This document shows positions 7,842 to 64,000 of a DNA stretch of 64,000 nt, in pieces. Both the position numbers and the translations under genes were made by a program. Source of the DNA: Rhodobacteraceae bacterium Alg231-04 (GTDB lineage: Bacteria > Pseudomonadota > Alphaproteobacteria > Rhodobacterales > Rhodobacteraceae); the NCBI GenBank assembly GCA_900143635.1, contig FREY01000003.1, positions 186,001 through 250,000 on the forward strand, in the 5' to 3' direction. Every line of letters begins with the position of its first letter. Within the stretch, counting starts at the first letter, position 1. The notes beneath the pieces were generated by a model, which did no database searches, was not told the DNA's origin, and was given only the letters and a program-made list of their open reading frames with translations.

Positions 7842-8005
7842 GGTCCGGATCCTTTTTTCGTCTTGCCGCTGTTTAGCGAATTTCGGGGTCTGCGCAAGAT
7901 TTTTACCCAAGTTCCAACGTAATGGAGCCCGCAAGAAAGCGCCAGATCTTGCCCCGCGCGCCCATGCAGATTACAGCAGGGCGATCTTTTGACCCGGAGC
8001 CCGCA

Positions 8006-8755: not shown

Positions 8756-8814
8756 GGCGACTGGACCTTGGCCCTGAGCGGCCCTAGCGTGTCGAAGAAT
8801 TGAATGAGGCAAGC

Positions 8815-9960: not shown

Positions 9961-9966
9961 TTTTTC

Positions 9967-11436: not shown

Positions 11437-11553
11437 CCTACTTCAATTAAACATTTTTCCGGTGCAGCCTGCCTGCTCCGGAAATACGTTTCTGGACGTG
11501 CTTTCAAATCTCCAGCTGCGCTGAATTCGCGACAGGACACCATGCCCGAATGG

Positions 11554-11904: not shown

Positions 11905-12033
11905 GGGAGTCTCCGCCGGTTGCAATGCGAAGTAATCCTGCACCTTCCGGGTTAGCTTTCCGTAAACCTCCCTTTTGTCGGTTTCTGGTCAGGCAATCTG
12001 GGTCGCTTTCCATGCCGATGCCCGCAAAAACGA

Positions 12034-12064
12034 AAATAGGCGCCCCGTTACGGGGCGCCTATTT
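12034..12064. terminator. Strong terminator downstream of gyrA
   Basis: 14-bp perfect stem AAATAGGCGCCCCG/CGGGGCGCCTATTT around a TTA loop, about 25 bases past the gyrA stop. The symmetric A/T ends make it usable on both strands, but gyrA (minus) is the only gene that points into it. Confidence 0.85.
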
Positions 12065-12088
12065 AGAACTGTTTTTCCGAAAGGAGGA

Positions 12089-14824: not shown

Positions 14825-15017
14825 GTTTGCTGCCCGTCTTTATTATGGGGTCTATATCTTGTGGATGCACTCTATCAGACCCGGCATATAAGGTGCAAGT
14901 CAGCAGCCCGGTCGCATGCAGTTTCATCGTTCACGCTTCGGTAACACTTTGTTTTCGTATGTTATTAACCATAAGCGCGCTACCATTATCCTACCGTTCC
15001 AGAAATGGAGGCAAATT

Positions 15018-15287
15018 ATGGAGCAGAGCGAAACCGAACTGATGCTGAAGGGCTATGGGCTGACCACAGCCGAGTTCACCTATCACATGCCCGACTATTC
15101 GCATGTGCTGAACACCTTCGTCTGGCAGGAATATGACCTGCTGCCAGACCATCCCCGATTGTTCAAATTCATAGAATTCTGGCAGAACGAGATTGAAGGC
15201 CCGCTGCATTCGATACGGTTCTCGCATCGAAAGATGATCAGCCCCGGCGAGTGGCGCAATGTGAAGGGCGTGCTGCGGCTACACTAG
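15018..15287 (+). CDS. Usg family protein
   Basis: 89-residue small protein of the Usg family, found almost only in Alphaproteobacteria and historically named for a position near trp genes; its function is not established. Characteristic residues are GYGLTTAEFTYHMPDY near the start and WQEYDLLPDHPRLFKFIEFW in the middle. ATG 15018 is preceded by ATGGAGG at 7 nt. An upstream frame to 14916 has no ribosome site. Divergent from gyrA, and followed after 70 bp by a convergent radical SAM gene. Confidence 0.88.
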   Translation: MEQSETELMLKGYGLTTAEFTYHMPDYSHVLNTFVWQEYDLLPDHPRLFKFIEFWQNEIEGPLHSIRFSHRKMISPGEWRNVKGVLRLH

Positions 15288-15357
15288 CCGCGCCCTCCGC
15301 AAGACCGCGATTTTCCGGATGGATCGGGCGGTATCTGTCCACTCGTCAGAAGGCCGG

Positions 15358-16311
15358 TTAGGCGGAACAGCTTGCGCCACCCAACACGCAGAACTTGGCG
15401 CAGTGGGGATGGTTCAGCTGCACATCTGCTTCGGCGTCTTTTAGGGTTTTTCCCATCTCGAATTCCGATGTGTAAGGCAGCAGGGTGCAGGCAAGAACCG
15501 ATGGTTGTTCGGCGCCCTTGCGCTTTACCACCATCCGCGAGGAAGCACACATGACATCCTTCGGAGATTTGTTCAGGATGTCCCAGCAAGCCGTTGTTAT
15601 TTCAGGAACTTCCACCTGTTCATCCATCTCTGGAAACAGCACGCAGGCGGCCGGGTTGGCGGCATCGATGGCATAACCCTGTGCCGCAAAAAGGGCCGCA
15701 AAGCCCGCACGGGCTTCCGCGTCGCTTTCCCCCCAGACCGTGCGTCCGGCGACTGCCATTTGAATGCCATTGTCGCGCAGCCAGTCCATGCCCTCCAGCG
15801 TTTTGGCAAAGCTGCCATTGCCGCGTTCTACGTCGTGGTTGTGTTGGGCGTGGTGATCCAGTGAAATGCGCAAAGTCAGTTTGCCGGGAAAATCCGCCTC
15901 AAGCGCCAGCAGGCCTTCGCGCACTGATTTGCGCATCATCGGCCGCATCGCATTGGTCAGCACCAGCACCTCATAACCGCGCTCCAGTGCGGCGCGGGTC
16001 ATCGCGTTCATCTCGGGGTTCATATAAGGCTCACCACCGGTAAAGGCGATTTCGCGGATCGGCCAGCGACGCTCTTCGATCTGATCCAGATAATCTTCGA
16101 CCTCAGATGCGGACAGGTAGACCAGCGCATCATTGCTGGGCGAGCTGAGAATATAGCAGTTGCTGCATTCGATATTGCACAGGGTGCCGGTGTTGAACCA
16201 CAGGGTTTCCGGGTGGCTCAGCGGTACCGAGGCACGGGTCTGGCCGTCAGCCGTCACGAAACTGTCCTGAAACTTGCCTAGATTGGCGGTGGGGTGGGGC
16301 AAGTCTTTCAT
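15358..16311 (-). CDS. Radical SAM protein with C-terminal cysteine cluster
   Basis: 317-residue radical SAM enzyme. The 4Fe-4S motif is C45-x3-C49-x2-C52 (LCNIECSNCY), followed by the SAM-binding FTGGEPYMN and VLTNAM segments. Further cysteines sit in the C-terminal third (ACW, MCASS, ACTLL) and at the very end, C304, C308 and C315 (HCAKFCVLGGASCSA), suggesting auxiliary iron-sulfur sites as in SPASM or twitch proteins. No precursor peptide or maturation partner is adjacent: it is flanked by convergent usg and divergent zwf. The substrate is unknown. Similar stand-alone genes occur in other roseobacters. Confidence 0.85.
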   Translation of the reverse strand: MKDLPHPTANLGKFQDSFVTADGQTRASVPLSHPETLWFNTGTLCNIECSNCYILSSPSNDALVYLSASEVEDYLDQIEERRWPIREIAFTGGEPYMNPEMNAMTRAALERGYEVLVLTNAMRPMMRKSVREGLLALEADFPGKLTLRISLDHHAQHNHDVERGNGSFAKTLEGMDWLRDNGIQMAVAGRTVWGESDAEARAGFAALFAAQGYAIDAANPAACVLFPEMDEQVEVPEITTACWDILNKSPKDVMCASSRMVVKRKGAEQPSVLACTLLPYTSEFEMGKTLKDAEADVQLNHPHCAKFCVLGGASCSA

Positions 16312-49513: not shown

Positions 49514-50269
49514 ATGCTCGAAATCAAGAACCTGCACGTACAGCTTGAAGAAGAAGACAAGCAGATCCTGAAAGGTGTCGACCTGAAGGTTGAGGCCGGT
49601 AAGGTCCACGCGATCATGGGTCCGAACGGATCGGGCAAGTCGACGCTCTCTTATGTTCTGTCGGGCAAGGGCGGCTATGAGGTCACCGAGGGTTCGGCCT
49701 CGCTGGCTGGCGACGATCTGTTGGACATGGAACCGGAAGAGCGCGCCGCCGCTGGCCTGTTCCTGGCGTTCCAATACCCGGTTGAAATCCCCGGCGTCGG
49801 CAACATGACCTTCCTGCGCACAGCCGTGAACGCACAGCGCAAAGCCCGCGGTGAGGACGAACTGTCGGCCGCCGACTTCCTGAAGGTGGTCCGCGCCAAG
49901 GCCAAGACCCTGAAGATCGACGCTGACATGCTGAAACGCCCGGTCAACGTCGGTTTCTCGGGTGGTGAGAAAAAGCGCAACGAGATCCTGCAGATGGCGA
50001 TGCTGGAGCCGAAGATGTGCATCCTGGACGAGACCGACTCCGGCCTCGATGTGGATGCAATGAAACTGGTGTCGGAGGGCGTAAACGCGCTGCGCGACGC
50101 CGGTCGTGGTTTCTTGGTTATCACGCATTATCAACGCCTTCTGGATCACATCAAACCCGATGTTGTGCACATTATGGCCAATGGTCGTATCATCAAGACC
50201 GGTGGCCCCGAACTGGCGCTGGAAGTTGAACAGAACGGCTATGCCGACATCCTGGCAGAGGTGGCATAA
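49514..50269 (+). CDS. sufC: Fe-S assembly ATPase SufC
   Basis: 251 residues. ABC-type ATPase that powers the SufBC2D scaffold; cytosolic, not a transporter. Walker A GPNGSGKST, Q-loop AFQYPVEIPG, signature FSGGEKKRNEI, Walker B MCILDETDSGLD and switch His ITHYQR are all intact. The LDETDSGLDVDA stretch is typical of SufC. It starts 75 bp after the YbjQ-like stop and abuts sufD directly (stop at 50269, ATG at 50270). Confidence 0.98.
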   Translation: MLEIKNLHVQLEEEDKQILKGVDLKVEAGKVHAIMGPNGSGKSTLSYVLSGKGGYEVTEGSASLAGDDLLDMEPEERAAAGLFLAFQYPVEIPGVGNMTFLRTAVNAQRKARGEDELSAADFLKVVRAKAKTLKIDADMLKRPVNVGFSGGEKKRNEILQMAMLEPKMCILDETDSGLDVDAMKLVSEGVNALRDAGRGFLVITHYQRLLDHIKPDVVHIMANGRIIKTGGPELALEVEQNGYADILAEVA

Positions 50270-51550
50270 ATGGCGCTGCCCGAACTGAAACAATCTGCAA
50301 CCGAGGCGCGGCTGGCCACAATGGAGCTGCCGACTGGTGGTTGCCTGAAAGCCGCCCGTCAGGCGGCCCTGTCGCGGGTCCAGACCATGGGCCTGCCGAC
50401 GCGCCGCGATGAATATTGGAAATACACCCGCCCGGAAACGCTGGTTTCGGCAGAGGCGAATACGGCGGCTGTCTTCGATCACGACGAAGCTCCGATGTTC
50501 GACGGTCAGGACCGGTTGAAAATTGTCTTTGTTGACGGTGTGTTCGACGCCGAAGCTTCGGATGAACTGGCGCTGGAAGGCGTGCAGATCGACCGGATCG
50601 AAGACATCTGCTGCAAGGATATCCACTGGGCCAAGGACGTCTATGGCGTGCTTGAGGCGCGTGGTCAGTCGCCGGTGGAACGCCCGCTGGCGGCCCTGAA
50701 CACGGCCTTTGCCGCCGATGGTGTGGCCATCCATGTGACCGGCACCCCGTCAAAGCCGATCAACCTGATCTACATCCACGCAGAAGAGCAATCCGACGCG
50801 ATCCTGCACCACGTAATCCGTGTCGAGCCGGGTGCCGAGGCGACAATTCTGGAAAACGGTCCCGCCGCCTCGCGCTTTAACAAATGCGTGGAAATCGATG
50901 TGGCGGACACTGGCAAGCTGCATTTGGTGCGCGCGCAGGGCCGCGACCATGAACGCCGCGCCGCGACGCATCTGTTTGCCCGTTTGGGCGCCGAGTCGGT
51001 GTTCAAATCCTTCACCCTGACCGTGAACGGCGTGCTGACCCGCAACGAAGCGGTGATTGAGCTGACGGGTGATGATGCGATTGCCCATATTGCTGGCGCT
51101 TGTGTCGGCGATGGTGAATTCCACCACGATGACACCGTTTTCATCACCCATGACGCGGTGAACTGTGAAAGCCGCCAGGTGTTCAAAAAGGTGCTGCGCA
51201 ACGGCGCAACCGGTGTTTTCCAGGGTAAGATTTTGGTGAAAGACGGCGCGCAAAAGACTGATGGATATCAGATTTCCCAGTCTTTGATGCTGGATGAGGA
51301 CAGCCAGTTCCTCGCCAAGCCGGAACTTGAAATTTATGCCGATGACGTGGCCTGCTCGCATGGGTCCACTTCCGGCGCCATTGACGAGAACGCCTTGTTC
51401 TACCTGCGTGCCCGCGGTGTGCCCAAGGAGCTCGCCACGGATCTGCTGACACTGTCTTTCCTCGCGGAAGCGGTGGAAGAGATCGAAAGCGCCGAGATCG
51501 CCGAAGATATCAACGCCCGTCTTGAGGGCTGGCTGGCACGCCGCCGCTGA
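50270..51550 (+). CDS. sufD: Fe-S assembly protein SufD
   Basis: 426 residues. Paralogue of SufB that completes the SufBC2D complex. Seen: the N-terminal helical domain with GLPTRRDEYWKYTRPETL, the beta-helix, and the C-terminal CSHGSTSGAIDENALFYLRARGVPKE with the conserved His near LFYLRARG. It begins directly after sufC and ends in a TGATG overlap with the first YIP1 gene. Confidence 0.97.
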   Translation: MALPELKQSATEARLATMELPTGGCLKAARQAALSRVQTMGLPTRRDEYWKYTRPETLVSAEANTAAVFDHDEAPMFDGQDRLKIVFVDGVFDAEASDELALEGVQIDRIEDICCKDIHWAKDVYGVLEARGQSPVERPLAALNTAFAADGVAIHVTGTPSKPINLIYIHAEEQSDAILHHVIRVEPGAEATILENGPAASRFNKCVEIDVADTGKLHLVRAQGRDHERRAATHLFARLGAESVFKSFTLTVNGVLTRNEAVIELTGDDAIAHIAGACVGDGEFHHDDTVFITHDAVNCESRQVFKKVLRNGATGVFQGKILVKDGAQKTDGYQISQSLMLDEDSQFLAKPELEIYADDVACSHGSTSGAIDENALFYLRARGVPKELATDLLTLSFLAEAVEEIESAEIAEDINARLEGWLARRR

Positions 51551-52032
51551 TGGCAGTGACCAGCGATATCATCGCCACCTATCGGGGGCCGCGCCGGGTT
51601 CTGGCGCGGCTCTTGGGCATGGGCATTCGTGAAGATCGGGTACTTGCCTTCCTGATGGGAGGCTGCGTGCTGACCTTTGTGGCGCAGATGCCGAAACTGG
51701 CCCGTGACGCGCATATGAGTGGTCAGGAGCTGAACATGCTTTTGGGCGCTTCTCTTCTGGGCTGGATATTTTTTGCGCCGCTGTTTTTCTATTTCTTAGC
51801 CTGGGTTATGCACCTCATTACCGCGATATTTGCAAAGCACGGCAGCAGCTACAACGCCCGGCTGGCGCTGTTCTGGGCCTTTCTCGCGGCCAGCCCGCTG
51901 ATGCTGCTGAACGGGCTGACCGCCGGTTTCATCGGACCCGGCGTCGAATTGACGCTGGTGGGCATTTTGTGGCTCGCTGTGTTTCTTTGGTTCTGGATTT
52001 CCGGAATGATTGAGGCCTATAGGCAGGCATGA
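51550..52032 (+). CDS. YIP1-family membrane protein, copy 1
   Basis: 160 residues with four membrane helices (about 34-50, 65-90, 105-127 and 130-152). The pattern fits the YIP1 domain (Pfam YIP1), whose bacterial members have unknown function. Its start overlaps the sufD stop by one base and its end overlaps copy 2 by 4 nt (ATGA), so it is a bona fide operon member. It has been seen in other roseobacter suf operons. Confidence 0.78.
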   Translation: MAVTSDIIATYRGPRRVLARLLGMGIREDRVLAFLMGGCVLTFVAQMPKLARDAHMSGQELNMLLGASLLGWIFFAPLFFYFLAWVMHLITAIFAKHGSSYNARLALFWAFLAASPLMLLNGLTAGFIGPGVELTLVGILWLAVFLWFWISGMIEAYRQA

Positions 52033-52616
52033 GCATGACCCTGCAAACACTCGCCATTCAGACTGTAACCAAACCGGCCGAGGCCGCCCGCGTGATCCTG
52101 TCGCGCGACTGGCCGCGCGAGGTGCTTTGGACCGGCCTGATGCTGGCCATGGTGCTGAATACAATTCTATTTGTCCTTCAGGGCATTCTGTTTCCTTTGC
52201 CCGATGGCATGCCCGGTGCGCGGATGTCGGCGACCGGATATTTCGCGCTGTTTTTTGCGATGCAGATCGTCTTTATCTATGCGGTCTTTTTTGCAGGCCG
52301 CTGGATGCGTGGTGCCGCGTCGCTGGGCGAAGTCATGGCGCTGATGATCTGGATCCAGTATCTTCAGTTTGTTCTGCACGTTGGCCTGCTGGTGGTGGTG
52401 ATGATCGCTCCGGGCCTTGGCGGTATGCTGAATATCGTGGCCACTGTTGTTGCCTTTTTTGTCATGTTGCACTTCATCAACGAGGCGCATGGCTTTGGAT
52501 CGCTGATGAAATCCTTTGGCGTTCTTCTTCTGGCGACGCTTGCCGTTGCCGTGGGTCTTACCATCCTGTTCAGCATGTTCGGGCTCTCTATTCTGGGACT
52601 TTCCACCAATGTATGA
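52029..52616 (+). CDS. YIP1-family membrane protein, copy 2
   Basis: 195 residues with about five membrane helices and an N-terminal MTLQTLAIQTVTKPAEAARVILSRDWPREVLW amphipathic segment that is a YIP1 hallmark. Overlaps copy 1 (ATGA) and sufS (8 nt, other frame). As with copy 1, no function is established. Its steady place between sufD and sufS suggests a link of assembly to the membrane. Confidence 0.78.
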   Translation: MSMTLQTLAIQTVTKPAEAARVILSRDWPREVLWTGLMLAMVLNTILFVLQGILFPLPDGMPGARMSATGYFALFFAMQIVFIYAVFFAGRWMRGAASLGEVMALMIWIQYLQFVLHVGLLVVVMIAPGLGGMLNIVATVVAFFVMLHFINEAHGFGSLMKSFGVLLLATLAVAVGLTILFSMFGLSILGLSTNV

Positions 52617-53829
52617 CGTCGCAAAAATCCGCGCCGATTTCCCGATCCTGTCACGTGAAGTGAACGGCAAGCCGCTGACCTATCTCGACAATGGTGCGTC
52701 CGCACAAAAGCCGAGTGTGGTCATTGACGCGGTTAACCGCGCCTATGCCGAGGAATATTCCAACGTTCACCGTGGCTTGCACTACCTTTCCAATCTCGCG
52801 ACCGAGAAGTACGAAAGCGTGCGTGGCAAGATCGCCCGCTTTCTGAATGCGCCGCATGAAGACACCATCGTTCTGAATTCAGGCACCACCGAAGGCATCA
52901 ATCTGGTCTCTTACGGCTGGGCCGCGCCGCGGTTTGAGGCCGGAGACGAGATCATCCTGTCAGTGATGGAACACCACGCCAATATCGTGCCCTGGCATTT
53001 CCTGCGCGAACGTCAGGGGGTTGTGCTGAAATGGGTAGATACGGCGCCCGATGGCAGCCTTGATCCGCAGGCGGTGATCGATGCCATCACGCCAAAGACC
53101 AAACTGATCGCAATCACCCAGTGTTCCAACGTGTTGGGCACTATTGTTGATGTCAAAAGCATCTGCACGGGCGCGCGCGATAAGGGCGTTCCGGTGCTGG
53201 TTGACGGCTCTCAGGGGGCGGTTCACATGCCGGTCGATGTGCAGGACATCGATTGTGATTTCTATGCCATTACCGGCCACAAACTCTATGGCCCGTCCGG
53301 GTCGGGCGCGATCTATATCCGCCCCGAGCGCATGGCGGAAATGCGCCCCTTCATGGGTGGTGGCGACATGATCAAGGATGTCTCCAAAGACACGGTCACT
53401 TATAATGAACCGCCTATGAAATTCGAGGCCGGCACGCCGGGCATCGTGCAGACCATCGGTCTGGGCGTGGCGCTAGACTACATGATGAACGTCGGCATGG
53501 AGAACATCGCCGCTCATGAGGCTGATCTGCGCAGTTACGCTCAGCAACGTCTGACCGGACTCAACTGGATCAATCTGCAAGGTACCGCAGCGGGTAAGGC
53601 GGCGATCTTCAGCTTCACGCTGGATGGCGCGGCCCATGCGCATGATATCTCGACCATTCTGGACAAGAAGGGCGTCGCCGTGCGCGCCGGCCATCACTGC
53701 GCCGGACCCCTGATGGAACATCTCGGCGTCACCGCCACCTGCCGTGCCTCCTTTGGCATGTATAATACCAAGGCAGAGGTCGACACGCTGATCGATGCGC
53801 TGGAACTGGCGCATGAGCTGTTTGCCTAA
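52609..53829 (+). CDS. sufS: Cysteine desulfurase, SufS type
   Basis: 406 residues. Class II PLP cysteine desulfurase. N-terminal FPILSREVNGKPLTYLDNGASAQKP, PLP lysine in ITGHKLYGPSGSGAIY, and active-site Cys in RAGHHCAGPLM near the C-terminus, all diagnostic of SufS. ATG 52609 overlaps the YIP1 stop by 8 nt; a further upstream frame has no homology. It ends the operon: a strong terminator follows, and neither sufA, sufE nor sufU is present. Confidence 0.97.
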   Translation: MYDVAKIRADFPILSREVNGKPLTYLDNGASAQKPSVVIDAVNRAYAEEYSNVHRGLHYLSNLATEKYESVRGKIARFLNAPHEDTIVLNSGTTEGINLVSYGWAAPRFEAGDEIILSVMEHHANIVPWHFLRERQGVVLKWVDTAPDGSLDPQAVIDAITPKTKLIAITQCSNVLGTIVDVKSICTGARDKGVPVLVDGSQGAVHMPVDVQDIDCDFYAITGHKLYGPSGSGAIYIRPERMAEMRPFMGGGDMIKDVSKDTVTYNEPPMKFEAGTPGIVQTIGLGVALDYMMNVGMENIAAHEADLRSYAQQRLTGLNWINLQGTAAGKAAIFSFTLDGAAHAHDISTILDKKGVAVRAGHHCAGPLMEHLGVTATCRASFGMYNTKAEVDTLIDALELAHELFA

Positions 53830-53850
53830 GCCAACTGTAAAGTAAAGAAA

Positions 53851-53874
53851 AAGGGGCCACTTGGCCCCTTTTTT
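53851..53874. terminator. Terminator of the suf operon
   Basis: 8-bp stem AAGGGGCC/GGCCCCTT with an ACTT loop, extended by A/T pairs on either side and followed by a T-run. It lies 22 bp after the sufS stop and can also serve the convergent tmpB gene. Confidence 0.88.
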
Positions 53875-53922
53875 GTTGCGCGATCCGGCAATCGAACCAA
53901 TGCGCCGTGGAGACTTGGTAAC

Positions 53923-55697
<1,775 letters not shown>

Positions 55698-55744
55698 TCA
55701 TCAAAAGAACTGAGTGTTTGATTGCGTGAGGCCCAAGTATTCTT

Positions 55745-56641
55745 ATGTCTGGTACGGCGACAAATCGGGGCCTTCCGCCTCTAGACTGGCTTCGTGTGTT
55801 CGAAGCTGCGGGGCGGCACGGTAATTTCACAGCGGCGGCAGAAGAGTTCGGAACGTCGCAGGCCGCAATCAGCCAGCGTATCAGAAATCTGGAAACCTGG
55901 CTCGGACGTAAACTGTTTATTCGCGCCGCGCGAGGTGTCTCTCTAACGGTGGATGGCGAAAGCTATCTGCCGCTCGTACAGGATGCCCTGACCGCATTGG
56001 CGCAAGGGACCGAAGATCTCTTCACGGCCTCCCCGCATGAAATGCGGATCGCCGGGCTCGACTCTCATCTGACAGGGTTGCTGTTACCAAGGATCAGCTC
56101 CTGTCTTGAAGGGCTGCCAAACATAAGGCTGGTTACGGATTCTGTCCCCAAGCGGTCCGACTTTGAAGATGAAAAGACAGCCTTTCACATTCGATTTGGA
56201 CGCGGCAAATGGCCGGGGCGCATAACACGCCGTCTGCATCAGGAAGAGTTGCAGCCGATGGTTGCGGGGGGTTTTGACGGTGACTGGCGGGAACGACCAA
56301 TCATCACCGTTCGCGGAGAACGCCCCGGTTGGCAGGAATGGTCCAACCAGGCCGGTGTTGCTGCCCCACGATCAGCCCGGCTTTCCTTCGATTCTATGGG
56401 ACACGGGCTGGTAGCCGCTGTTTCTGGGCAGGGTGTTGTGCTCGGGTCCACCGTACTTGGGGCGCATCTGATCGCATTGGGCGCGCTAAAACCTTGTTCA
56501 GACGTCGGTCTCATGACGGATCAGGCTTATTGGCTTTCGTGGCCCGAGACATTCACCGCGTCACCCAAGCGCAAGGCTTTGGCGGACAGGTTAACCGAAG
56601 TGTTGCGAGCGCCTCCTCGTCTCCCCGACACCGAGGAATAG
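55745..56641 (+). CDS. LysR-family regulator (likely of tmpAB)
   Basis: 298 residues. N-terminal winged helix: LDWLRVFEAAGRHGNFTAAAEEFGTSQAAISQRIRNLETWLGRKLFIR, then a periplasmic-binding-like effector domain (about 95-290). Divergent from tmpA with 101 bp between start codons, the standard layout for a regulator of the neighbouring catabolic genes. The effector could be a quaternary ammonium phosphonate, but this is inference. Confidence 0.9.
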   Translation: MSGTATNRGLPPLDWLRVFEAAGRHGNFTAAAEEFGTSQAAISQRIRNLETWLGRKLFIRAARGVSLTVDGESYLPLVQDALTALAQGTEDLFTASPHEMRIAGLDSHLTGLLLPRISSCLEGLPNIRLVTDSVPKRSDFEDEKTAFHIRFGRGKWPGRITRRLHQEELQPMVAGGFDGDWRERPIITVRGERPGWQEWSNQAGVAAPRSARLSFDSMGHGLVAAVSGQGVVLGSTVLGAHLIALGALKPCSDVGLMTDQAYWLSWPETFTASPKRKALADRLTEVLRAPPRLPDTEE

Positions 56642-57262
56642 ATAGGGTTCGAGGTTTTCACGACATGAGCCTACAGGTTTTACAGAAGATCTGCATACCG
56701 CCATGCCATCGGCGTGCTTTTTGACGTGTCTCGTCACTCAATTGAGTTGAGATGCAGTTATGGGCGACCTGGAGTTCCTGAAACAGATCCTGTTGGTGTT
56801 CCCAAGGATGTGCCCGGTGTGGAACTGGTCGGAGCTCCAGGAGTGTCCTCTCGTTCGTCGTCGCCCGGTTCACGCCCCGGCGGCAGGCACTCAACCAAAC
56901 TGCCATCGGCGTCGTAAGGGGCGACGCAATTTTCAGGCGGGAGAACACATTTCGCTTCTTCAGGAACGGCACCAGGAACATAGACGACTCCACTCTCGTA
57001 GGATCCTCGCCACCATATTAGTAAACACAGGCCGAGGCGCCTCAAGTCGGACTGGTTCGTCCTGTGTGCAGTCAGCCACAAAAGCGACGGCAGCCAACAT
57101 GGTGGCGACTTTCTAGATCGGCTTTTGTCTCTCCCTGTTTTGGATTGGTGACTGCCGGGCGGATGTGCTGCCCGGAGCGCGGACCTGTCCTATCCGCAGG
57201 GGGAAACGTGATGCGACGATGCATTTTGACGAAACCATCGATTGGATGTGGCTTGCAAACCC
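56642..57262. other. Gap between the LysR and AlgX-like genes
   Basis: 621 bp with no intact gene I can support. 56758-57100 holds a probable frameshifted small-lipoprotein gene on the minus strand (listed separately). The stretches 56642-56757 and 57101-57262 show no ORF with a ribosome site and no convincing hairpin. Confidence 0.6.
56758..57100 (-). pseudogene. Possible frameshifted small lipoprotein gene
   Basis: Starting at ATG 57100, one minus-strand frame gives MLAAVAFVADCTQDEP, with a hydrophobic stretch before a lipobox-like Cys, and reads on to a stop at 56960. In the overlapping neighbouring frame, a 107-codon ORF ending at 56758 gives a plausible secreted sequence: GSYESGVVYVPGAVPEEAKC, then three-Cys CVLPPENC...ECLPPG, then a Pro/Gly/Thr-rich tail. 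A single frameshift near the VARI/GSYE region would join them into one lipoprotein of about 110 residues. The downstream position and strand match the polysaccharide genes. It may instead be non-coding. Confidence 0.35.
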
Positions 57263-58585
57263 CTAACGGTCCGTCAGGTTCAGGGTAATCTCGTCCTTGA
57301 ATACACCTCGGTCGCTGCGCAACGATACCTGTACGATCGTGCCAACCAGAAGCCCTTCCAGACTGTAGGCCATTCGGTTTGATTGTCGGTCACTTGGAAC
57401 ACGTGGTGAGCGGACGAGTGAGACAGTTTCCTTTTGACCGGTGGCATTCTTGAGCGTGACTTTGACGCGGCGCATGTCAGTTTCCCCAACTTCCACAACC
57501 AAGTAGTCCGGAACAGGGCTTGTTGGCTGTGATCCGATTCCCCCTTGTTCTGTAATCGTAAGGGTTTGGCCACCGCCCTTGTTGATGCGAAGCGCGCCAA
57601 GCAATTGGCGCATAAAGCTCTCCGTGTTCTTCCAAAAGGTATAAGGAAGCTCCCATACCACCAAGTCATAGTCCCCTGCGTCCAATGCACCGGACAGAAC
57701 CAAGCTTTCAATTCCAGCAATTGAGCCGCCGCCGGAGACCGAATAATTGTCCACCTGGGCATCAAAGGCGGCGGCAAGCGACTCCGCGACGCGGTAGTAA
57801 TCCTTTTTGTAGCGATCGCTATAGCTTGAGCCAGCAAGTGCAATCCGCGGTTTCTGAGGCCCATCTGCGAACAGATCTGTTTCACCGCTATGAAAAATAG
57901 GGAGTTTTACAACTTCTGCCGCCAACCGTTTGCCACAGACGGCATCCGTCATGTCCGACAGGGACCCTCGTTCCTGCAATGTCTGACTGTCATGATCCAA
58001 ATCTGCCAAACCTGTTCCCACATCTAGAAAGGCTTCAACTCCCTGCGCTGCGATCTGGGTAGCAAGGTCCTGAACGCTAGCCAATGCACCCATTGGCGTC
58101 CAATGCGTGTCACGTTTGAAGTAGTAGTTGTTTCTCAGTTCCGGCTGTCCGGTCGCTACTTTTGCAAGATCCGGAACAAGGGCACCAGTTTTTTGCAGTC
58201 GTTCCACCGTTTCCGAGAAGCTGTCTAGTGCACGTGCTGCGTCGAAATCATGCGGGCCACCAGCCAGATCATCAATTACCTGTTGTCCTGCGATGGCCGG
58301 GCGTGGTGGGGTCAGAAGGATGGCCAAATGGCTCCCGCGGTTTTCAAACTCCTGAACGATCTCCTGCAAAAGGCGCAGCGTCTCATCCGAGGCAGAATAG
58401 GTGGGCCGCAACTGGTCGTTGGTGATGATCCACCCACCGTCCGCGTCGCTGAGAACCGGCGCGAGCTTTTTGTATTTCTTCGGCATTGTGTCAGGCGACA
58501 TCAGCTGCGTACAGATTGGTTCGGCGGTGGCGGCTATTGCATTTAACATCAATGCAATTGTGATACTCATTGTTTTTAAAGTCAT
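57263..58585 (-). CDS. AlgX-like polysaccharide O-acetyltransferase
   Basis: 440 residues. Signal peptide 1-21 (MTLKTMSITIALMLNAIAATA), then an SGNH-hydrolase-like acetyltransferase domain with D159 and H161 (RDTHW) and nucleophile S254 (AGSSYS). The spacing D-H-S (159, 161, 254) equals that of Pseudomonas AlgX (174, 176, 269), which transfers acetyl to mannuronate in the periplasm. A C-terminal beta-rich region (about 340-440) matches the carbohydrate-binding module of AlgX. It overlaps algJ-like by 4 nt (ATGA). Last gene of the acetylation operon. Confidence 0.82.
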   Translation of the reverse strand: MTLKTMSITIALMLNAIAATAEPICTQLMSPDTMPKKYKKLAPVLSDADGGWIITNDQLRPTYSASDETLRLLQEIVQEFENRGSHLAILLTPPRPAIAGQQVIDDLAGGPHDFDAARALDSFSETVERLQKTGALVPDLAKVATGQPELRNNYYFKRDTHWTPMGALASVQDLATQIAAQGVEAFLDVGTGLADLDHDSQTLQERGSLSDMTDAVCGKRLAAEVVKLPIFHSGETDLFADGPQKPRIALAGSSYSDRYKKDYYRVAESLAAAFDAQVDNYSVSGGGSIAGIESLVLSGALDAGDYDLVVWELPYTFWKNTESFMRQLLGALRINKGGGQTLTITEQGGIGSQPTSPVPDYLVVEVGETDMRRVKVTLKNATGQKETVSLVRSPRVPSDRQSNRMAYSLEGLLVGTIVQVSLRSDRGVFKDEITLNLTDR

Positions 58586-59625
58586 TTCTTCGCCCTCCTT
58601 GTGCTCAAATATCGTTCAGGGATTTCCCAGATGACCAAGTCAGGCAGGGTATCGGTATCCGCCATCTGATCCAAAAACAGATGCATTGGATGGAACGGGC
58701 CGCGGCCAACTTGGGAGTAATTCACGACATCGGCTTGTAACGCCGATTTCAAAAACCCTTCGAAATGGAAATCTTCGAGGGTCGAGTAACTGGTTCCAAC
58801 AAGGGCGATAGGAACCTCTGCGTCACCGAATAGTCCCATATTCCCTCGGTCTGCGTCTGGGATAGACATGGTGGAATAGGTCGAAATTTTTTCGGCTTTG
58901 GGTCCGACATTTGTCCAGACACCGGTATCGGCAAACGCCAAAAGATCACCCACGAATGGCGCGGTGCCGGTCTGTTGGGTTCGAAAGCCTGTCCGGCTGA
59001 AGTTCGTAGCATCCACCGTCCCCGCAACGGCGTTTGCCACAGCTTCGGCTCCCTCTGGGCTCCAATGTGTATCGGTTCGCAGATACGATGGGGTGCTTGG
59101 ATCCATAGTTTGCAGAACCTGTCCCGCGTCTACGACTGTAATGCCCATTTCCATGAGGGTTGCTTTGTGAGCCTCGTATCGGTTTTCGAATGCAGCAGAG
59201 CGGCCTGTCGGCAGTTTGGCCGACATCACGCGGGCCTTGTCCGGGACAAGCACAACAAGGAAATCTGCGCCGAAACTGCCAATGGTGCCTGCGATATCGC
59301 GAAGCTCTTCCTCAAAGTCAGGTGCTGCGCTCGGTTCTTCGAATTCTTCCGCCGAGTACAGCCAGCCGTCGACCCCGAGAATGGCCCCGTTGGCCACCTC
59401 ACCGAAGGCTGCAATCTTGAAGGCTGCCCAGGTTGTTCGTGAAAGGTCCCTCAAAGGGAAGGCATCGTCGAACCGGGTTTCATACAGGCGCTGACTGCTC
59501 CCATTTCCCAATTGCCAACCCAAGTTTGATACGGAGGCTGTCGAAAGGGCAATACTGCCTGGGACAGCCGTCAACAGAGTCAGTGTCGCAACAAGCGGCA
59601 CGGTTTTCTTTTGGTTGATTTGCAT
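58582..59625 (-). CDS. AlgJ-like periplasmic acetyltransferase
   Basis: 347 residues. An N-terminal membrane anchor or uncleaved signal (about 8-30) leads into an SGNH-like domain: LGVDGWLYSAEEFEE, then D185 and H187 (RTDTHWSPEGAEAVA) and nucleophile S279 (VGTSYS). This matches AlgJ, the acetyl carrier or transferase between AlgI and AlgX. There is no C-terminal carbohydrate-binding module, unlike the neighbour. ATG 59625 follows AAGG and lies 14 bp after the algI stop; an upstream start would run into algI. Confidence 0.8.
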   Translation of the reverse strand: MQINQKKTVPLVATLTLLTAVPGSIALSTASVSNLGWQLGNGSSQRLYETRFDDAFPLRDLSRTTWAAFKIAAFGEVANGAILGVDGWLYSAEEFEEPSAAPDFEEELRDIAGTIGSFGADFLVVLVPDKARVMSAKLPTGRSAAFENRYEAHKATLMEMGITVVDAGQVLQTMDPSTPSYLRTDTHWSPEGAEAVANAVAGTVDATNFSRTGFRTQQTGTAPFVGDLLAFADTGVWTNVGPKAEKISTYSTMSIPDADRGNMGLFGDAEVPIALVGTSYSTLEDFHFEGFLKSALQADVVNYSQVGRGPFHPMHLFLDQMADTDTLPDLVIWEIPERYLSTRRAKK

Positions 59626-59639
59626 GGCCTCGGCGCCTT

Positions 59640-61067
59640 TCAGAATTGGAAGTACAAAAAGGGAGAGTCGGATCGGGCCTGCATGATCAACCCGCACAGG
59701 GCAAACAGCGCGACAACTGTCAAACTTCGCAATTGCTGGTGTGCCGGGATCGTGACCGGTGAGAGGTTCGCGGCACGCAAACGCGCGTCAAACACGGGCC
59801 AGACGGTCAGTGTCACACCAATTGCAAGAAACAGCAGCTCGGTCGGGCGTATCAACAGCAGGGTTTCGGCAGTTAGCAAGAAACCGTTTTCAGCCAGCAT
59901 TCCTTTATAAATGTTGATCGCATGTGCAACAGTTTCAGCACGAAACATCACCCAGCCAATCATGACAAATGCCATTGTGAGCGGCCAGGCAAGGAAGCGA
60001 GGCCAGACCGGGTCTTGAGACTTGGACCCCAGTCGACGTTCCAGTGCCATTAAGCCTCCGTGCCATATGCCCCATAAAACAAAGGTCCAGTTTGCACCAT
60101 GCCATAGCCCGCCCAACACCATCGTCAGAACAAGGTTTCGGTAGGTCTTGAGCCCGCCGCCCCGGTTGCCGCCAAGTGGAATATACAGATAGTCACGCAG
60201 CCAGTTGGACAGGCTGATGTGCCAGCGCTGCCAGAATTCGGTTACCGACCGGCTGATATAAGGATTGTTGAAATTTTCGACAAAGCGGAACCCGATCATC
60301 AACCCCAAACCAATCGCCATGGCGGAATAACCGGCGAAATCAAAGAACAGCTGGATCGAATAGGTGAGGGCGGCCAGCCAGGCCTCTGCCATTGTTGGAT
60401 CTGGCAAGGCAAACAACCGGTCCGCCATGGGCGCGACTGAATCCGCTATCAGCAGCTTCATGGCCAGACCGACAACAAAGCGTTGCGTTCCCTTCGAGAA
60501 GGCGTCCAAGGAATGGGATCTATGAGTGAGTTGGTCAGCGAGATCCTTGTAGCGCAGGATCGGACCGGCGATGAGCTGGGGAAACAGAGTGGAGAATGCG
60601 AGAAAGTCGATCAGGCTGCGTGCTGGTGGCGCGTCTTTTCGCGAAACATCCAAGATGTAGCTGATCGACTGAAACACAAGAAACGACAGGCCGATGGGCA
60701 AGATGATTTCGGGAAGATCAAAGGAGGCTTCGGAAGTCCCTAATTTGGTCATCGCCGCCTCGAACGAGCCCGCAATGAAATACGCATATTTAAACCAGCC
60801 AAGGCACAGCAGATTTATTGAAACTCCGATCCGCACCGCCCACTGACGGTGCTTGGCATCAGCTGCACGGATAGAGACATATCCGGCCACAAAGCTGACA
60901 GCTGCAATCCCCAGAACCAGCAGAAGATATGTCGCCTTCCACCAGCCATAGAAGAGGCAGCTTCCGACCAGTATGACGGCCGTTCTGCGCGTGGCGGGCA
61001 CCACGAAATAAACTGCCAGAAACAGGGGCAGGAAGGCGAAGATGAACAGTGGCGTCGAAAAGATCAT
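59640..61067 (-). CDS. AlgI-like MBOAT acetyltransferase
   Basis: 475 residues, about 11 membrane helices. MBOAT protein that moves acetyl from a cytosolic donor across the membrane to AlgJ/AlgX. Marks: FWQRWHISLSNWLRDYLYIPLGGNRGG, LGGLWHGANWTFVLWGIWHGG, with H323 in LWHG at the place of the essential His322 of Pseudomonas AlgI, and H336. ATG 61067 has one base between it and the algF-like stop, so coupled. Same order as in Pseudomonas, where algI-algJ-algF are adjacent, though with algF first here. Confidence 0.9.
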   Translation of the reverse strand: MIFSTPLFIFAFLPLFLAVYFVVPATRRTAVILVGSCLFYGWWKATYLLLVLGIAAVSFVAGYVSIRAADAKHRQWAVRIGVSINLLCLGWFKYAYFIAGSFEAAMTKLGTSEASFDLPEIILPIGLSFLVFQSISYILDVSRKDAPPARSLIDFLAFSTLFPQLIAGPILRYKDLADQLTHRSHSLDAFSKGTQRFVVGLAMKLLIADSVAPMADRLFALPDPTMAEAWLAALTYSIQLFFDFAGYSAMAIGLGLMIGFRFVENFNNPYISRSVTEFWQRWHISLSNWLRDYLYIPLGGNRGGGLKTYRNLVLTMVLGGLWHGANWTFVLWGIWHGGLMALERRLGSKSQDPVWPRFLAWPLTMAFVMIGWVMFRAETVAHAINIYKGMLAENGFLLTAETLLLIRPTELLFLAIGVTLTVWPVFDARLRAANLSPVTIPAHQQLRSLTVVALFALCGLIMQARSDSPFLYFQF

Positions 61068-61068
61068 G

Positions 61069-61677
61069 TCATCCACCTGGGGCCAAGGAAACGACCGGCC
61101 CAAAGCTGTTTTCGATCAGTGATCCGCCATCAATTGTCGCGAGGAACGTCAGGTTTTGACCGCGACGTAGTCGAAGATCGAAGTCAGACAGGACTTGTTC
61201 ATCAGACACGCGCTCCATCGACAGGTGCGCTGAGACTGGATTCACTGAACGTGATGCGGCAGCCGCGCTCTGGACTGGCGCAATAACTTCAGGGCCTCCA
61301 TCTGAGACGGTCAACCGAACAGGCCCATCGGACGCATTCACGATGAAAAGGTGAACTTTGGACCGGTCACTTCGATCTGGTTCTGAAATCACTGTTTTGC
61401 CGTCGGGGAGGACCGAATGAAACAGTCCCTCTGGCGGCTCGACCAGCTCGGCTTGGCTCAACGCGATGTAAGTTGTCCCATACTCAGGGTCATAAGGGAT
61501 GCGGCTGCCAAACACAGTCAGTGCAGTGTCGGGTTCGCCCAAAAACCGAATGAAAACAGCATCCTTTGGCGGGAGGGTGTCATAAAGCGCTTCTTCACCT
61601 GCCAATCCGGCACCGGCCGCCACGACATTGAACGAAATTAGCAGTGTAGCGTGTTTCCAAGTCACATTATCAAACAT
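61069..61677 (-). CDS. AlgF-like protein
   Basis: 202 residues. Signal peptide about 1-26 (cleavage near GLAG), then a beta-rich periplasmic domain with EALYDTLPPKDAVFIRFLGE at the mature N-terminus and SKVHLFIVNASDGPVRLTVSDGG in the middle. The former is the usual AlgF opening (L-Y-P-G-AFVR-), the latter the VQLYNLSD-like segment. AlgF helps periplasmic acetyl transfer in Pseudomonas. AAGGGAC precedes ATG 61677. The call rests on pattern and position beside AlgI, so it is slightly less firm. Confidence 0.7.
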   Translation of the reverse strand: MFDNVTWKHATLLISFNVVAAGAGLAGEEALYDTLPPKDAVFIRFLGEPDTALTVFGSRIPYDPEYGTTYIALSQAELVEPPEGLFHSVLPDGKTVISEPDRSDRSKVHLFIVNASDGPVRLTVSDGGPEVIAPVQSAAAASRSVNPVSAHLSMERVSDEQVLSDFDLRLRRGQNLTFLATIDGGSLIENSFGPVVSLAPGG

Positions 61678-61845
61678 GGCTATGTCCCTTCTTTCACAGG
61701 GTTATTGGTATCACCCGCTGGTTCATTCCGTGCGCCGGTAGGGGGATAGGAGGAGTTCTCTTTTGGATACCCACTTACACATTGGGGGAGGTGGGACATT
61801 GCCCAGCGCAGCTGCGAACGGGTCAGAGATCTTGAGAACACGCCG

Positions 61846-62913
61846 TCAGTTCTGAAACTTAAGCACGGCCAATTCCCGTGAGATCAGTTTGATTGCATCG
61901 GACTTCAATGGACCGTGCCGACAGACGTCGATTATGCCGACGTCCTTGCAGAATGCTGCAATGGCTCTGATCGTCTTGCCGGTAAGAAAGCCAGATGCCG
62001 GACCCGGTTGGTAGCCAAGGCCGACAAGTTCGTGCTGGGTTTCCAGAACAAAGGCATTTTTGCTAATGCGTGAGGCAACGAAAAGCGCCCGCGCATAGTT
62101 TGGCTGTTCAATTTCACTAAGCACACTGGCGGCATCAGTTGAAAAGCTTTGTGGAGATCGTTCGGCCAACAAATACAGCGTTTCTTCGGACCAGGTTTTC
62201 CCACGCACGCCGTCCAGCCCAAGAAGCGCCTGACGGGTCGATCTGGTGTGATCATCCTTGTCACCAAAAATTCGGAGATAGGGTAGAAGTTTTTCGGCGA
62301 CTTTTGCGTCCCCGGCGTCGGTAAAGGAAATTGCCAATAGAATCAGCTCATCTTCGCTGTCGAGCCGACTGCCTGTTTTAGTTGCCGTATACAACACGCC
62401 TAGCAGAGCTGCCCGATCACCCTCTTTTGCCAGTGAAATCAAAGAGTCAGTAGCCTGTTCCGGCTTTGAAAACGGTCCGAGGTTGTTGATGGCATGCTGG
62501 GTCAAAAACTCTACCCGCGCGCCTCCTAGGTTCAGCGCAAGAGCCGTCTCAAAACTCGAGATCGCCTGATCGTACTGTCCAAGCCTGGCTTGCGTTTTTG
62601 CCAAAGCCAATAGCGAACGGTCATGACCCAGTTTAACTGCAGTCTCATAATATAACACCGCTTGGTTCGGGTCGACGGGGGTGCCTAGACCCTTGAGAGT
62701 GAAGTACCCAAGCCTGTCATAAGCCCGCGCGTAACCTTGATCGGCAAGGTTCGCCATCTCGGCAAAGGCTAGATCTTGGTTGGTCTCAAGCAGCGACAGC
62801 GCATCTGCATAACGGGCCCTGATCGATGTCATGTCCTGACTAGCCATCGACATTTGCGGGCCCGTTGCCAGAGTTAAAACACCACTGAACAGTAGTTTAG
62901 CGAATACATGCAT
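61846..62913 (-). CDS. Sel1/TPR-repeat periplasmic protein (AlgK-like position)
   Basis: 355 residues. Signal peptide about 1-24 (cleavage near MASQ), no lipobox Cys. Sel1/TPR repeats run from about 30 to 145 (ADQGYARAYDRLGYFTLKGLG and YYETAVKLGHDRSLLALAKT) and helical repeats continue to about 290. A C-terminal peptidoglycan-binding-like segment is suggested by GLGYQPGPASGFLTGKTIRAIAAF. AlgK in Pseudomonas is a TPR lipoprotein that helps assemble the export complex; this protein takes a similar place but is not a clear orthologue. GGGAG precedes ATG 62913. Confidence 0.75.
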   Translation of the reverse strand: MHVFAKLLFSGVLTLATGPQMSMASQDMTSIRARYADALSLLETNQDLAFAEMANLADQGYARAYDRLGYFTLKGLGTPVDPNQAVLYYETAVKLGHDRSLLALAKTQARLGQYDQAISSFETALALNLGGARVEFLTQHAINNLGPFSKPEQATDSLISLAKEGDRAALLGVLYTATKTGSRLDSEDELILLAISFTDAGDAKVAEKLLPYLRIFGDKDDHTRSTRQALLGLDGVRGKTWSEETLYLLAERSPQSFSTDAASVLSEIEQPNYARALFVASRISKNAFVLETQHELVGLGYQPGPASGFLTGKTIRAIAAFCKDVGIIDVCRHGPLKSDAIKLISRELAVLKFQN

Positions 62914-63168
62914 TGAATTCTCCCTTCACACTCCCTGAACAGATCCTAACGACGTGGCTGAAAGGTGCTGACCCTTCAAAGGGATAGGGTGCGGCGCGTT
63001 GGAACAGTTGGGGCGGCGCGGAACAGGCCTGAGGGGGCAAAACAGGGTGAGCTTAGGCCCCGTTTGGGCAGGTCAGCTATACCATTGAGAGAACCGTGTC
63101 TCCGCATGCGCCCGCGAAACCTCGCCTCGTACAAGTAAACTGACCGGGTGAGAGAGAAGGAGTTGTTC

Positions 63169-64000
63169 GTGAAAATCCGGCACGAAAGACCAATGTCAGA
63201 ACTGGCATTTCGCGTGCGTGCGCCGCTGCGTCTGGAGCTTTCGGACGGCAGTGAGGTTGTTGTGCGGGAATGGAGTCTTGTTGGGCTTCGCTTTGCGGAC
63301 GACGTGGACATCCTTCCTGTCACTGGCAACCTTGTCATTCCGTTTCAGGGGGTGGAGATCAAGTTTCCGGTGCGTCTTAAACAGGATGAAACATCGGGGG
63401 AGGCGCGTTTCGTGGACCTGACTGGGCGGCAACGCGAAACGCTCGCTTTGTTTTATCGGTCGATCCTCAACGGCCAAATGGCAGCAACGGATCAGATCAT
63501 CACCAGTCTGGATACGCCGGTTGACCTGGTTCCAATGGGTGAAACCGAGGAAGAGGAGAATGACGGTAAGGCAAAGGCAGTGCCCAGACGCCTGCGCGCA
63601 GCTTTCTCGCTTGGGATCTATGCCTTGGTTGCGGTTTTGGTTTTTGGACTTCTGGGGAGTCAGCTGTGGAACAGGCTGAACATCATTCGCCTCAATAGCG
63701 GCTACATCAGTGCACCCATCAGCCAATATGTTGCGGGGCAGGGAGCCTTTGTAGAAGAGATAAGGGTCACCCCCGGAGAGCGGGTCAAAGCGGGGCAGAC
63801 GCTCATCGTACTCAGTGATCCAAACAGATCCGCCGATGTTGAACAAATCCGCTCTGAGATCCGTCTTGCCAAAGCCCGATTGGCCGAGGCCCGGATTGCA
63901 CTGGAGGATTTTGAGGCCCGGATAGAAGGCAAACGCCGTCAACTGGTACGCATCTATCAGCAGGAACAGCGAAAACTCCGGTTGCGCCAATTCCTTGGTG
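63169..64000 (+). CDS. Alg44-like protein (PilZ-like, membrane, HlyD-type), truncated by the window
   Basis: 277 codons visible; runs off the right edge. GTG 63169 follows AGAAGGAG at 6 nt, better than ATG 63193. Residues 1-110 resemble a PilZ domain: R17-x3-R21 (like R17/R21 of Pseudomonas Alg44), then EWSLVG in place of the D-x-S-x2-G motif, with Glu for Asp. A membrane helix follows (147-165), then a biotinyl-lipoyl domain (178-215, GYISAPISQYVAGQGAFVEEI) and a coiled coil (222 onward). This is the Alg44 architecture, in which c-di-GMP switches on the polymerase Alg8. Divergent from the acetylation operon. Confidence 0.8.
   Translation, partial: MKIRHERPMSELAFRVRAPLRLELSDGSEVVVREWSLVGLRFADDVDILPVTGNLVIPFQGVEIKFPVRLKQDETSGEARFVDLTGRQRETLALFYRSILNGQMAATDQIITSLDTPVDLVPMGETEEEENDGKAKAVPRRLRAAFSLGIYALVAVLVFGLLGSQLWNRLNIIRLNSGYISAPISQYVAGQGAFVEEIRVTPGERVKAGQTLIVLSDPNRSADVEQIRSEIRLAKARLAEARIALEDFEARIEGKRRQLVRIYQQEQRKLRLRQFLG

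What the first reader, a model, noticed from the sequence alone, without database searches (positions are those of the whole stretch)
57263..64000. Alginate-type acetylated exopolysaccharide locus in a roseobacter
AlgX-like, AlgJ-like, AlgI-like, AlgF-like and Sel1/TPR genes lie in one tight minus-strand operon, and an Alg44-like gene starts divergently next to it. The sequence shows the catalytic residues intact. Known Alg systems are best described in Pseudomonas and Azotobacter; a re-ordered set in a marine alphaproteobacterium, split into two divergent operons and next to phosphonate genes, points to an acetylated secreted polymer that may not be alginate. The synthase, porin, epimerase and lyase are not visible; they may lie beyond 64000.
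Basis: partly seen in the sequence, partly recalled or inferred. Interest (0 to 1): 0.8.

Follow-up and report, generated by a model that had tools for sequence, protein, structure and literature searches.

The report
Alginate-like polymer locus in roseobacters
A marine bacterium carries a gene set for making and acetylating an alginate-like sugar polymer, but in a version that pairs the polymer machine with a secreted calcium-binding protein and seems to have lost the usual c-di-GMP switch and the usual epimerase.

Summary
A tight minus-strand operon algX-algJ-algI-algF-Sel1/TPR (57263-62913) lies back to back with alg44. Past 64000, after a gap of 12 bp, comes an Alg8-like synthase, then algA, algD (best solved match GDP-mannose dehydrogenase) and an RTX protein gene. 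The precursor is thus most likely GDP-mannuronate, so an alginate-type polymer, probably O-acetylated poly-mannuronate, is likelier than an unrelated one. No AlgG epimerase was found in the genome; AlgE and AlgL searches found nothing, but those models are weak here.

The locus belongs to a lineage of alg44-alg8 loci ("type A"), in 30 of 394 genomes of the family and in 80 named loci (a capped list), distinct from canonical-like operons ("type B") of the same family. Two features mark type A. An RTX-repeat gene lies near alg8 in 61 of 65 loci, against 0 of 16 loci of the distant kind. The Alg44 N-domain is predicted to fold as PilZ, yet both arginines of the c-di-GMP motif are present in 0 of 65 aligned, while a sister Roseibium lineage keeps them; type B Alg44 seems to lack them too. 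The outer-membrane exit is unknown. Verdict: a new variant of the alginate kind; function untested.

The parts
57263..58585 (-). algX-like, 440 aa, SGNH acetyltransferase domain plus a C-terminal region; D159/H161/S254
58582..59643 (-). algJ-like, 353 aa, SGNH acetyltransferase with N-terminal membrane helix; D191/H193/S285
59640..61076 (-). algI-like MBOAT O-acyltransferase, 478 aa, motif GGLWHG at 322
61069..61677 (-). algF-like acetylation adaptor, 202 aa
   Evidence: PF11182 40.7 bits, cut-off 34.4
61846..62913 (-). Sel1/TPR protein, 355 aa, no cysteine in the first 40 residues (no lipobox); candidate AlgK-like scaffold, in the place that AlgE takes in some relatives
63148..64000 (+). alg44-like, 474 aa in all: degenerate PilZ domain (about 1-119), one membrane helix (151-169), HlyD-like adaptor; the gene runs 572 bases past the window. 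The rest of the locus lies outside, in L002 coordinates (L002 1 = window 60001): alg8 4585-6174 +, algA 6289-7716 +, terminator-like stem 7745-7773 +, algD 7910-9307 +, RTX protein 9323-11794 +, LuxR-type response regulator 11813-12427 -, Oxidored_molyb protein 12651-13169 +, PAS hybrid kinase 13180-15744 +
   Evidence: Alg44; genes outside:

Best explanation
An alginate-type, synthase-dependent exopolysaccharide locus of a lineage (type A) found mostly in roseobacters and their relatives. AlgA and AlgD make GDP-mannuronate; Alg8 with Alg44 polymerises it at the inner membrane; AlgI passes acetyl groups to AlgJ and AlgX, held together by AlgF, which O-acetylate the chain in the periplasm. With no recognisable AlgG, the product is most likely poly-mannuronate without G-blocks. 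The RTX protein, sent out by a type I system encoded elsewhere, is the likely calcium-dependent partner that holds the polymer at the cell or in the matrix, a job that Ca-bound G-blocks do in other alginates (recalled). The synthase is probably not switched on by c-di-GMP through the usual PilZ motif; the adjoining kinase and response regulator genes are the likelier control. Shown by sequence: gene identities, catalytic residues, order, conservation, absence of the RxxxR pair. Inferred: polymer identity, acetylation, the role of the RTX protein, loss of c-di-GMP control. Unknown: the outer-membrane exit.
For: Families and residues. Synthase, algA and algD follow alg44. 30 of 394 family genomes hold type A Alg8 (57-80% identity to ours, counted from the table); the other hits are 29-39% there. 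In the 80 named loci (best 80 of 190) an Alg44 match lies upstream of alg8 in 80 of 80, ending within 400 bases of it in 72; in the other 8 (seven Roseibium-type and L156) only the first half matches ours. Of 63 loci with at least 8.5 kb downstream, 44 have algD and 43 the propeller-RTX gene; 41 of these 43 have the response regulator. RTX-repeat ORF within 7.5 kb of alg8: 61 of 65 type A loci, 0 of 16 loci of the distant kind, 0 of 10 background stretches. PilZ fold with the Alg44 PilZ among the top matches; both R present in 0 of 65, kept in 7 of 7 readable Roseibium-type; type A stands apart from Roseibium in the Alg8 tree, support 91/94, below the tool's star threshold. No AlgG in the own genome, while 10 of 10 type-B-only genomes searched give one, one of them a self-match. 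Two PrtD-type T1SS ATPases above cut-off in the own genome.
Against: No polymer or phenotype data. 14 of 30 type A genomes give no AlgF at the threshold used, and in several the cassette lies elsewhere in the genome, so its tie to this synthase is loose. RTX proteins are common in the family: 19 genomes of 394 hold a 38-46% homologue of the RTX N-part but no type A Alg8, and 4 of 65 type A loci have no RTX ORF nearby. No Pseudomonas Alg8 sequence was at hand for direct comparison, and phmmer with Alg8 found no PDB match at 0.001. Type B Alg44 of the same family seems to lack the motif as well, so its loss is not special to type A, and c-di-GMP might bind another way.
Confidence: 0.65

Rival explanations
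1. An ordinary alginate system whose exporter (AlgE/AlgK), lyase and epimerase are merely scattered or too diverged to be seen; the RTX gene is incidental.
For: Six named type A loci carry an AlgE-like barrel next to algF, four of them seen only as its 3' part at the edge of the locus (PF13372 62 bits for the one in L075). 3 of 30 type A genomes have PF13372 matches, two beside algF. PF13372 finds nothing in 10 of 10 type-B-only genomes, so a negative with it means little. The Sel1/TPR protein could serve as AlgK.
Against: The AlgE of a type A relative also finds nothing in the own genome or in 27 other type A genomes (2 of 30 hit). AlgG is missing by two queries whose controls ring. The RTX linkage holds in 61 of 65 type A loci and 0 of 16 loci of the distant kind.
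Confidence: 0.25
2. The polymer is not alginate: Alg8 of this lineage uses another sugar, or makes a mixed uronic polymer.
For: Type A Alg8 is far from the distant kind (29-39% identity; long branch), and 19 of 63 type A loci have no algD on the same strand after alg8, though several carry one nearby on the other strand.
Against: algA and an algD nearest to solved GDP-mannose dehydrogenase adjoin in the own locus; algD follows in 44 of 63 relatives.
Confidence: 0.12
3. The acetylation operon serves a different polymer and only happens to stand beside alg44.
For: The cassette is not near alg44-alg8 in most relatives: F-I-J-X together in 12 of 69 loci with at least 6.5 kb upstream; copies on other contigs or over 1 Mb away in G210, G372, G230, G270 and G264.
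Against: AlgX and AlgF are alginate-type acetylation proteins, and the cassette lies within 10 kb upstream of alg8 in 12 named loci.
Confidence: 0.1
4. Alg44 still senses c-di-GMP through a non-canonical site.
For: The PilZ fold is kept and other residues are strongly conserved (invariant H12, A25, W42, P65, F66, Q67, R96, E97 and others), so the domain is under selection; most of the stretch before the first strand is modelled at pLDDT under 50 (residues 9-17).
Against: The position of the first arginine is D or E in 57 of 65 and never R.
Confidence: 0.25

Closest known systems
Pseudomonas aeruginosa / Azotobacter alginate system (algD-8-44-K-E-G-X-L-I-J-F-A; order recalled)
   Same: Homologues of Alg8, Alg44, AlgD, AlgA, AlgI, AlgJ, AlgF, AlgX; catalytic residues of AlgJ and AlgX (PMC4148444, passages read)
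   Different: Order and strands; no AlgG found; AlgE, AlgK and AlgL not recognised; RxxxR of the Alg44 PilZ absent; RTX partner and two-component genes present
Atypical alginate operons of Bundalovic-Torma et al. 2020 (PMC7112194, 12 of 17 passages shown)
   Same: Rearranged operons that lost outer-membrane (algKE) or modification genes, in environmental and deep-sea bacteria; they also note extra alg44 and algX diversity
   Different: The main text has no hit for 'alphaproteobac' or 'roseobacter'; in the passages seen the RTX partner and PilZ loss are not mentioned; its supplement was not read
Type B alginate-like operons of the same family (this work)
   Same: Alg8, Alg44, AlgD and AlgA in most, AlgI/AlgJ/AlgF in part; Alg44 seems likewise without RxxxR
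   Different: AlgG lies in 13 of the 16 fetched loci of the distant kind, with a Sel1-like lipoprotein-looking gene in many; no RTX gene within 7.5 kb in 16 of 16
Sinorhizobium meliloti WgeA (ExpE1) and galactoglucan (PMC2912261, passages read)
   Same: Secreted calcium-binding protein tied to an exopolysaccharide; TolC-dependent secretion; [quoted passage not shown]
   Different: Galactoglucan, not an Alg8 system; homology of WgeA with this RTX protein was not tested
Azotobacter vinelandii secreted RTX mannuronan epimerases (AlgE1-7; recalled)
   Same: RTX modules in a protein tied to alginate
   Different: Those carry a beta-helix catalytic module (recalled); here the N-terminal part is modelled as beta-sandwich plus propeller

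Membership tests
Canonical alginate system | Alg8-type GT2 synthase | tested here: met
   29-39% identity, E 1e-88 and weaker in fetched loci with AlgG, to Alg8 proteins of the distant kind, 13 of 16 fetched loci having AlgG nearby; not compared with Pseudomonas Alg8 itself
Canonical alginate system | Alg44 with cytoplasmic PilZ domain and periplasmic adaptor | tested here: met
   Predicted fold: 4xrn_C Z 11.9 and 4rt1_B Z 11.8, rmsd 2.8 and 2.6, 95 aligned each (tied); Foldseek 4rt0_C E 7e-5; HlyD_3 38.8 bits
Canonical alginate system | c-di-GMP motif RxxxR in Alg44 | tested here: not met
   Own E18/R22; both R in 0 of 65; 5 of 65 have some RxxxR string elsewhere in the stretch aligned to own residues 5-27
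Canonical alginate system | GDP-mannose 6-dehydrogenase AlgD | tested here: met
   1mfz 387.6 bits against 254 for the best UDP-glucose enzyme
Canonical alginate system | AlgA | tested here: met
   TIGR01479 583.8 bits, cut-off 372.95
Canonical alginate system | O-acetylation set AlgI, AlgJ, AlgF, AlgX | tested here: met
Canonical alginate system | AlgE outer-membrane porin | tested here: inconclusive
   No PF13372 match and no match to a type A AlgE in the own genome, but PF13372 also misses 10 of 10 type-B-only genomes
Canonical alginate system | AlgK TPR/Sel1 lipoprotein | tested here: inconclusive
   Sel1/TPR protein present, no lipobox; a near full-length homologue beside algF was seen only in G072; in the 80 named loci only its last 40-120 residues match, in L122, L127, L144 and L163
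Canonical alginate system | AlgG mannuronan C5-epimerase | tested here: not met
   A type B AlgG and NF038177 find none in the own genome; the controls ring in 10 and 9 of 10 type-B-only genomes, though no NF038177 match in any of the 40 genomes reaches the curated cut-off. Beta_helix hits in the own genome are a NosD, next to nosZ- and nosF-like genes, and a 761-aa protein that does not look related (names by my reading)
Canonical alginate system | AlgL lyase | tested here: inconclusive
   No PF05426 match; PF14099, the lyase family near some type B loci, was not searched in the own genome
Canonical alginate system | Polymer of mannuronate and guluronate | not testable with these tools
   needs chemistry
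Secreted RTX mannuronan epimerase (AlgE1-7 type) | beta-helix catalytic module joined to RTX modules | tested here: inconclusive
   The model at mean pLDDT 89.8 shows a propeller at about 163-469 and no long beta-helix outside the RTX array; a fold search alone does not exclude

The most novel reading that the evidence does not exclude
Type A is a distinct mode of alginate-type secretion: a poly-mannuronate synthase no longer switched by c-di-GMP, without epimerase and in many members without a recognisable AlgK-AlgE exit, in which a secreted RTX protein takes over the calcium-dependent cohesion that G-blocks give elsewhere, and in which the HlyD/EmrA-like adaptor of Alg44 may hand the chain to a TolC-like channel.
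Probability: 0.25. Interest if true: 0.75.

Novelty: new variant of a known kind. Interest (0 to 1): 0.52.

Why it matters
Alginate is studied mainly in Pseudomonas and Azotobacter. A separate lineage in marine roseobacters (Shimia, Ruegeria, Tateyamaria, Thalassovita, Sulfitobacter and others), several of them named strains, would offer a natural experiment: what an alginate synthase needs to work without the PilZ switch, how a uronic polymer leaves the cell without a recognisable AlgE, and whether a calcium-binding protein can replace G-blocks in a calcium-rich sea. It also bears on surface colonisation and on the polymers that marine bacteria release.

Tried and rejected
RTX protein as a hidden epimerase: rejected as unlikely after modelling. 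The fold search of the whole 828-residue model is filled by RTX and propeller matches (best row an RTX ice-binding protein, Z 23.3; best propeller a human apyrase, Z 14.6); no function is read from them.

Solved-structure search with Alg8 gave nothing at 0.001, and with Alg44 only chance-level biotinyl-domain matches. Rfam: no match in 50000-64000. Plasmid collection: 14 records, all under 60% identity, 9 of them Rhizobium; not followed. A scan for barrel ORFs upstream of algF in cassettes without AlgE gave nothing consistent, but its base-composition filter was too strict for several loci, so it proves nothing. The PF13372 matches of G342, and the second one of G139, were fetched and showed no alg genes around them.

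TolC exit: only an idea.

Literature: ten searches listed no paper that, by title and start of abstract, treats alginate-type loci with RTX partners in roseobacters. Four of the lists were cut (20 of 426, 12 of 21, 15 of 25 and 12 of 23 rows), and the library holds open-licence papers only, so this does not show that none is in print. [quoted passage not shown] PMC5770400 (passages) has no hit for alginate.

Rows dropped: the Alg44 alignment A3 holds 64 of 80 named loci plus the window. 12 of 80 did not pass the score cut (L157, L159, L164, L165 and L166-L173), and 4 more were skipped (L094, L107, L148, L154). L164-L173 were then read, L167 being unreadable there because of a wrong start. L157, L159, L094, L107, L148 and L154 were not examined for the motif. 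The Alg8 tree used 66 rows after thinning. The RTX count used 65 of 80 loci (those with at least 6.5 kb downstream).

Full report
WHAT IS THERE. The window is G000:C17:186001-250000, inside a contig of 606 kb. The five minus-strand genes and the divergent alg44 are real. AlgX and AlgJ carry the Asp-x-His and Ser residues of the solved enzymes (PMC4148444, passages read). To the right of 64000 come alg8 (12 bp after alg44), algA, algD, an RTX gene, then a convergent LuxR-type response regulator, an Oxidored_molyb protein and a PAS hybrid kinase. The best solved match of AlgD is GDP-mannose 6-dehydrogenase, aligned to the last residue.

WHAT IS MISSING. In the own genome there is no AlgG by a type B AlgG query or by NF038177. 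The same query found an AlgG in all 10 type-B-only genomes searched, one of them its own source; NF038177 found 9 of these 10, all far under its curated cut-off. No Alginate_lyase PF05426. No Alginate_exp PF13372 and no match to the AlgE-like barrel of a type A relative; but PF13372 also found nothing in the 10 type-B-only genomes, so the porin question stays open.

TWO LINEAGES. A search of 394 genomes of the family with Alg8 gave 60 with a match at 1e-30: 30 with close homologues (57-80% to ours, here type A) and 30 with only distant ones (29-39%); four type A genomes (G072, G264, G302, G340) hold a distant one too. Sixteen loci of the distant kind were fetched. Thirteen of them have AlgG nearby and look like alginate operons (type B), with algD, alg8, an alg44-like gene and algA in most, algI in 7 of 16, and algX/algJ-like genes; L065, L068 and L069 do not. 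Type A loci have alg44, alg8, often algA, algD and an RTX gene. A scan of named genomes with the Alg8 alignment kept the best 80 of 190 loci: Shimia, Ruegeria, Tateyamaria, Thalassovita, Sulfitobacter mediterraneus, Tritonibacter multivorans, Gemmobacter and others, and Roseibium at the far end of the kept list. An Alg44 match lies upstream of alg8 in 80 of 80.

THE RTX PARTNER. Of 63 named loci with at least 8.5 kb after alg8, 44 have algD and 43 the propeller-RTX gene; 42 of the 44 with algD have it. In the 394 genomes, the N-part of this RTX protein is found at 50% identity or more in 23 genomes (in one as two partial pieces), all of them among the 30 type A genomes; 19 further genomes hold 38-46% homologues and no type A Alg8 (counted by eye from the tables). 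A looser count of any RTX-repeat ORF within 7.5 kb of alg8 gives 61 of 65 type A loci (not in L105, L144, L151, L152), 0 of 16 loci of the distant kind and 0 of 10 background stretches. Related genomes are not independent, so these are descriptions rather than probabilities. In Roseibium the RTX protein precedes alg44 and has another N-part (DUF4114). The model of the Loktanella homologue (mean pLDDT 89.8) shows a small sandwich, a propeller and a long RTX roll. Two PrtD-type ATPases elsewhere in the genome could export it. A precedent is WgeA, to whose missing secretion the loss of galactoglucan in a tolC mutant is ascribed (PMC2912261, passages read).

THE PILZ DOMAIN. Residues 1-119 of Alg44 fold as a PilZ domain in prediction (mean pLDDT 76.3), with the Alg44 PilZ of Pseudomonas among the top matches. 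The canonical c-di-GMP motifs are RxxxR and DxSxxG (PMC8461298, passages read). At the place of RxxxR, judged from the range of the structural alignment, stand residues 18 and 22. Position 18 is D in 45 and E in 12 of 65 rows, never R; R at both is 0 of 65; D or N in DxSxxG occurs in 9 of 65. Seven readable Roseibium-type sequences have RLHYR there and DxGxxG, while L164 and L165 lack it; Pfam sees PilZ above cut-off in the two Roseibium-type proteins tested. In the Alg8 tree the 57 type A rows form one side of a branch apart from Roseibium, with support 91/94, under the tool's star threshold. With the motif in Pseudomonas Alg44 (PMC8461298), the simplest reading is one loss in the type A line. 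Against a clean story, the 9 Alg44-like genes of type B printed show no RxxxR in the corresponding region by eye (one, L073, has such a string near its start; only one was aligned), so the root state rests on Pseudomonas and Roseibium alone.

ACETYLATION AND EXIT. AlgF is found in 16 of 30 type A genomes, next to the synthase in some and elsewhere in others. In named loci with at least 6.5 kb upstream, 12 of 69 have F-I-J-X there, and 6 of 69 also an AlgE, full or nearly full in L138 and L141 and cut by the locus edge in L134, L137, L140 and L143. Five of the six fall in one clade with Sulfitobacter and Tritonibacter; L137 was thinned out of the tree. In the own locus and in G072 a Sel1/TPR protein stands in that place. 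AlgF is described as an interaction mediator of the acetylation proteins (PMC10641220, abstract and outline seen) and AlgK-AlgX as a modification and secretion complex (PMC9734138, abstract and outline seen).

JUDGEMENT. It works like an alginate system up to the periplasm; it fails two features of the canonical one that could be tested (AlgG, the c-di-GMP motif), so it is filed as a variant. Atypical operons without outer-membrane genes are known in outline (PMC7112194). What seems new is the steady RTX linkage, the lost motif with a sister lineage that keeps it, and the breadth among roseobacters. Everything about the product and its control is inference.

Noticed in passing
window 53923-55643: TmpB and TmpA, the 2-trimethylaminoethylphosphonate oxygenase pair, both above NCBIfam cut-offs, with a LysR-type regulator at 55745-56641.
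   Followed up: partly
L172 6149-21452 (Roseibium album); gene matches alike in L166-L173: Order in L172: RTX, alg44, alg8, an unassigned 444-aa protein, Sel1 protein, MBOAT, a 654-aa protein without Pfam match, hybrid kinase; the 654-aa protein is a candidate new modifying enzyme.
   Followed up: partly
L065 (G340:C23): A 504-aa Alg8-like GT2 (41% over part) beside the same kinase, Oxidored_molyb and response regulator genes, with no Alg44 recognised: perhaps a third kind of locus.
   Followed up: no
L037, L038, L046: algA is replaced by a short ORF of 142-152 aa matching only the C-terminal isomerase part of AlgA.
   Followed up: no
L139, L142: Type A Alg8 in MAGs labelled Acetobacteraceae and Reyranellaceae groups inside rhodobacterial sequences; transfer or binning error.
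   Followed up: no
L002 16307-17182 (window coordinates about 76307-77182): An rve-domain (IS-type) integrase gene just beyond the kinase.
   Followed up: no
G234:C27:252142-253044 and G040:C1:438568-439467: AlgG-like proteins at 178-201 bits to NF038177, higher than those of type B loci but under the cut-off, in two type A genomes without a match to the propeller-RTX N-part.
   Followed up: no
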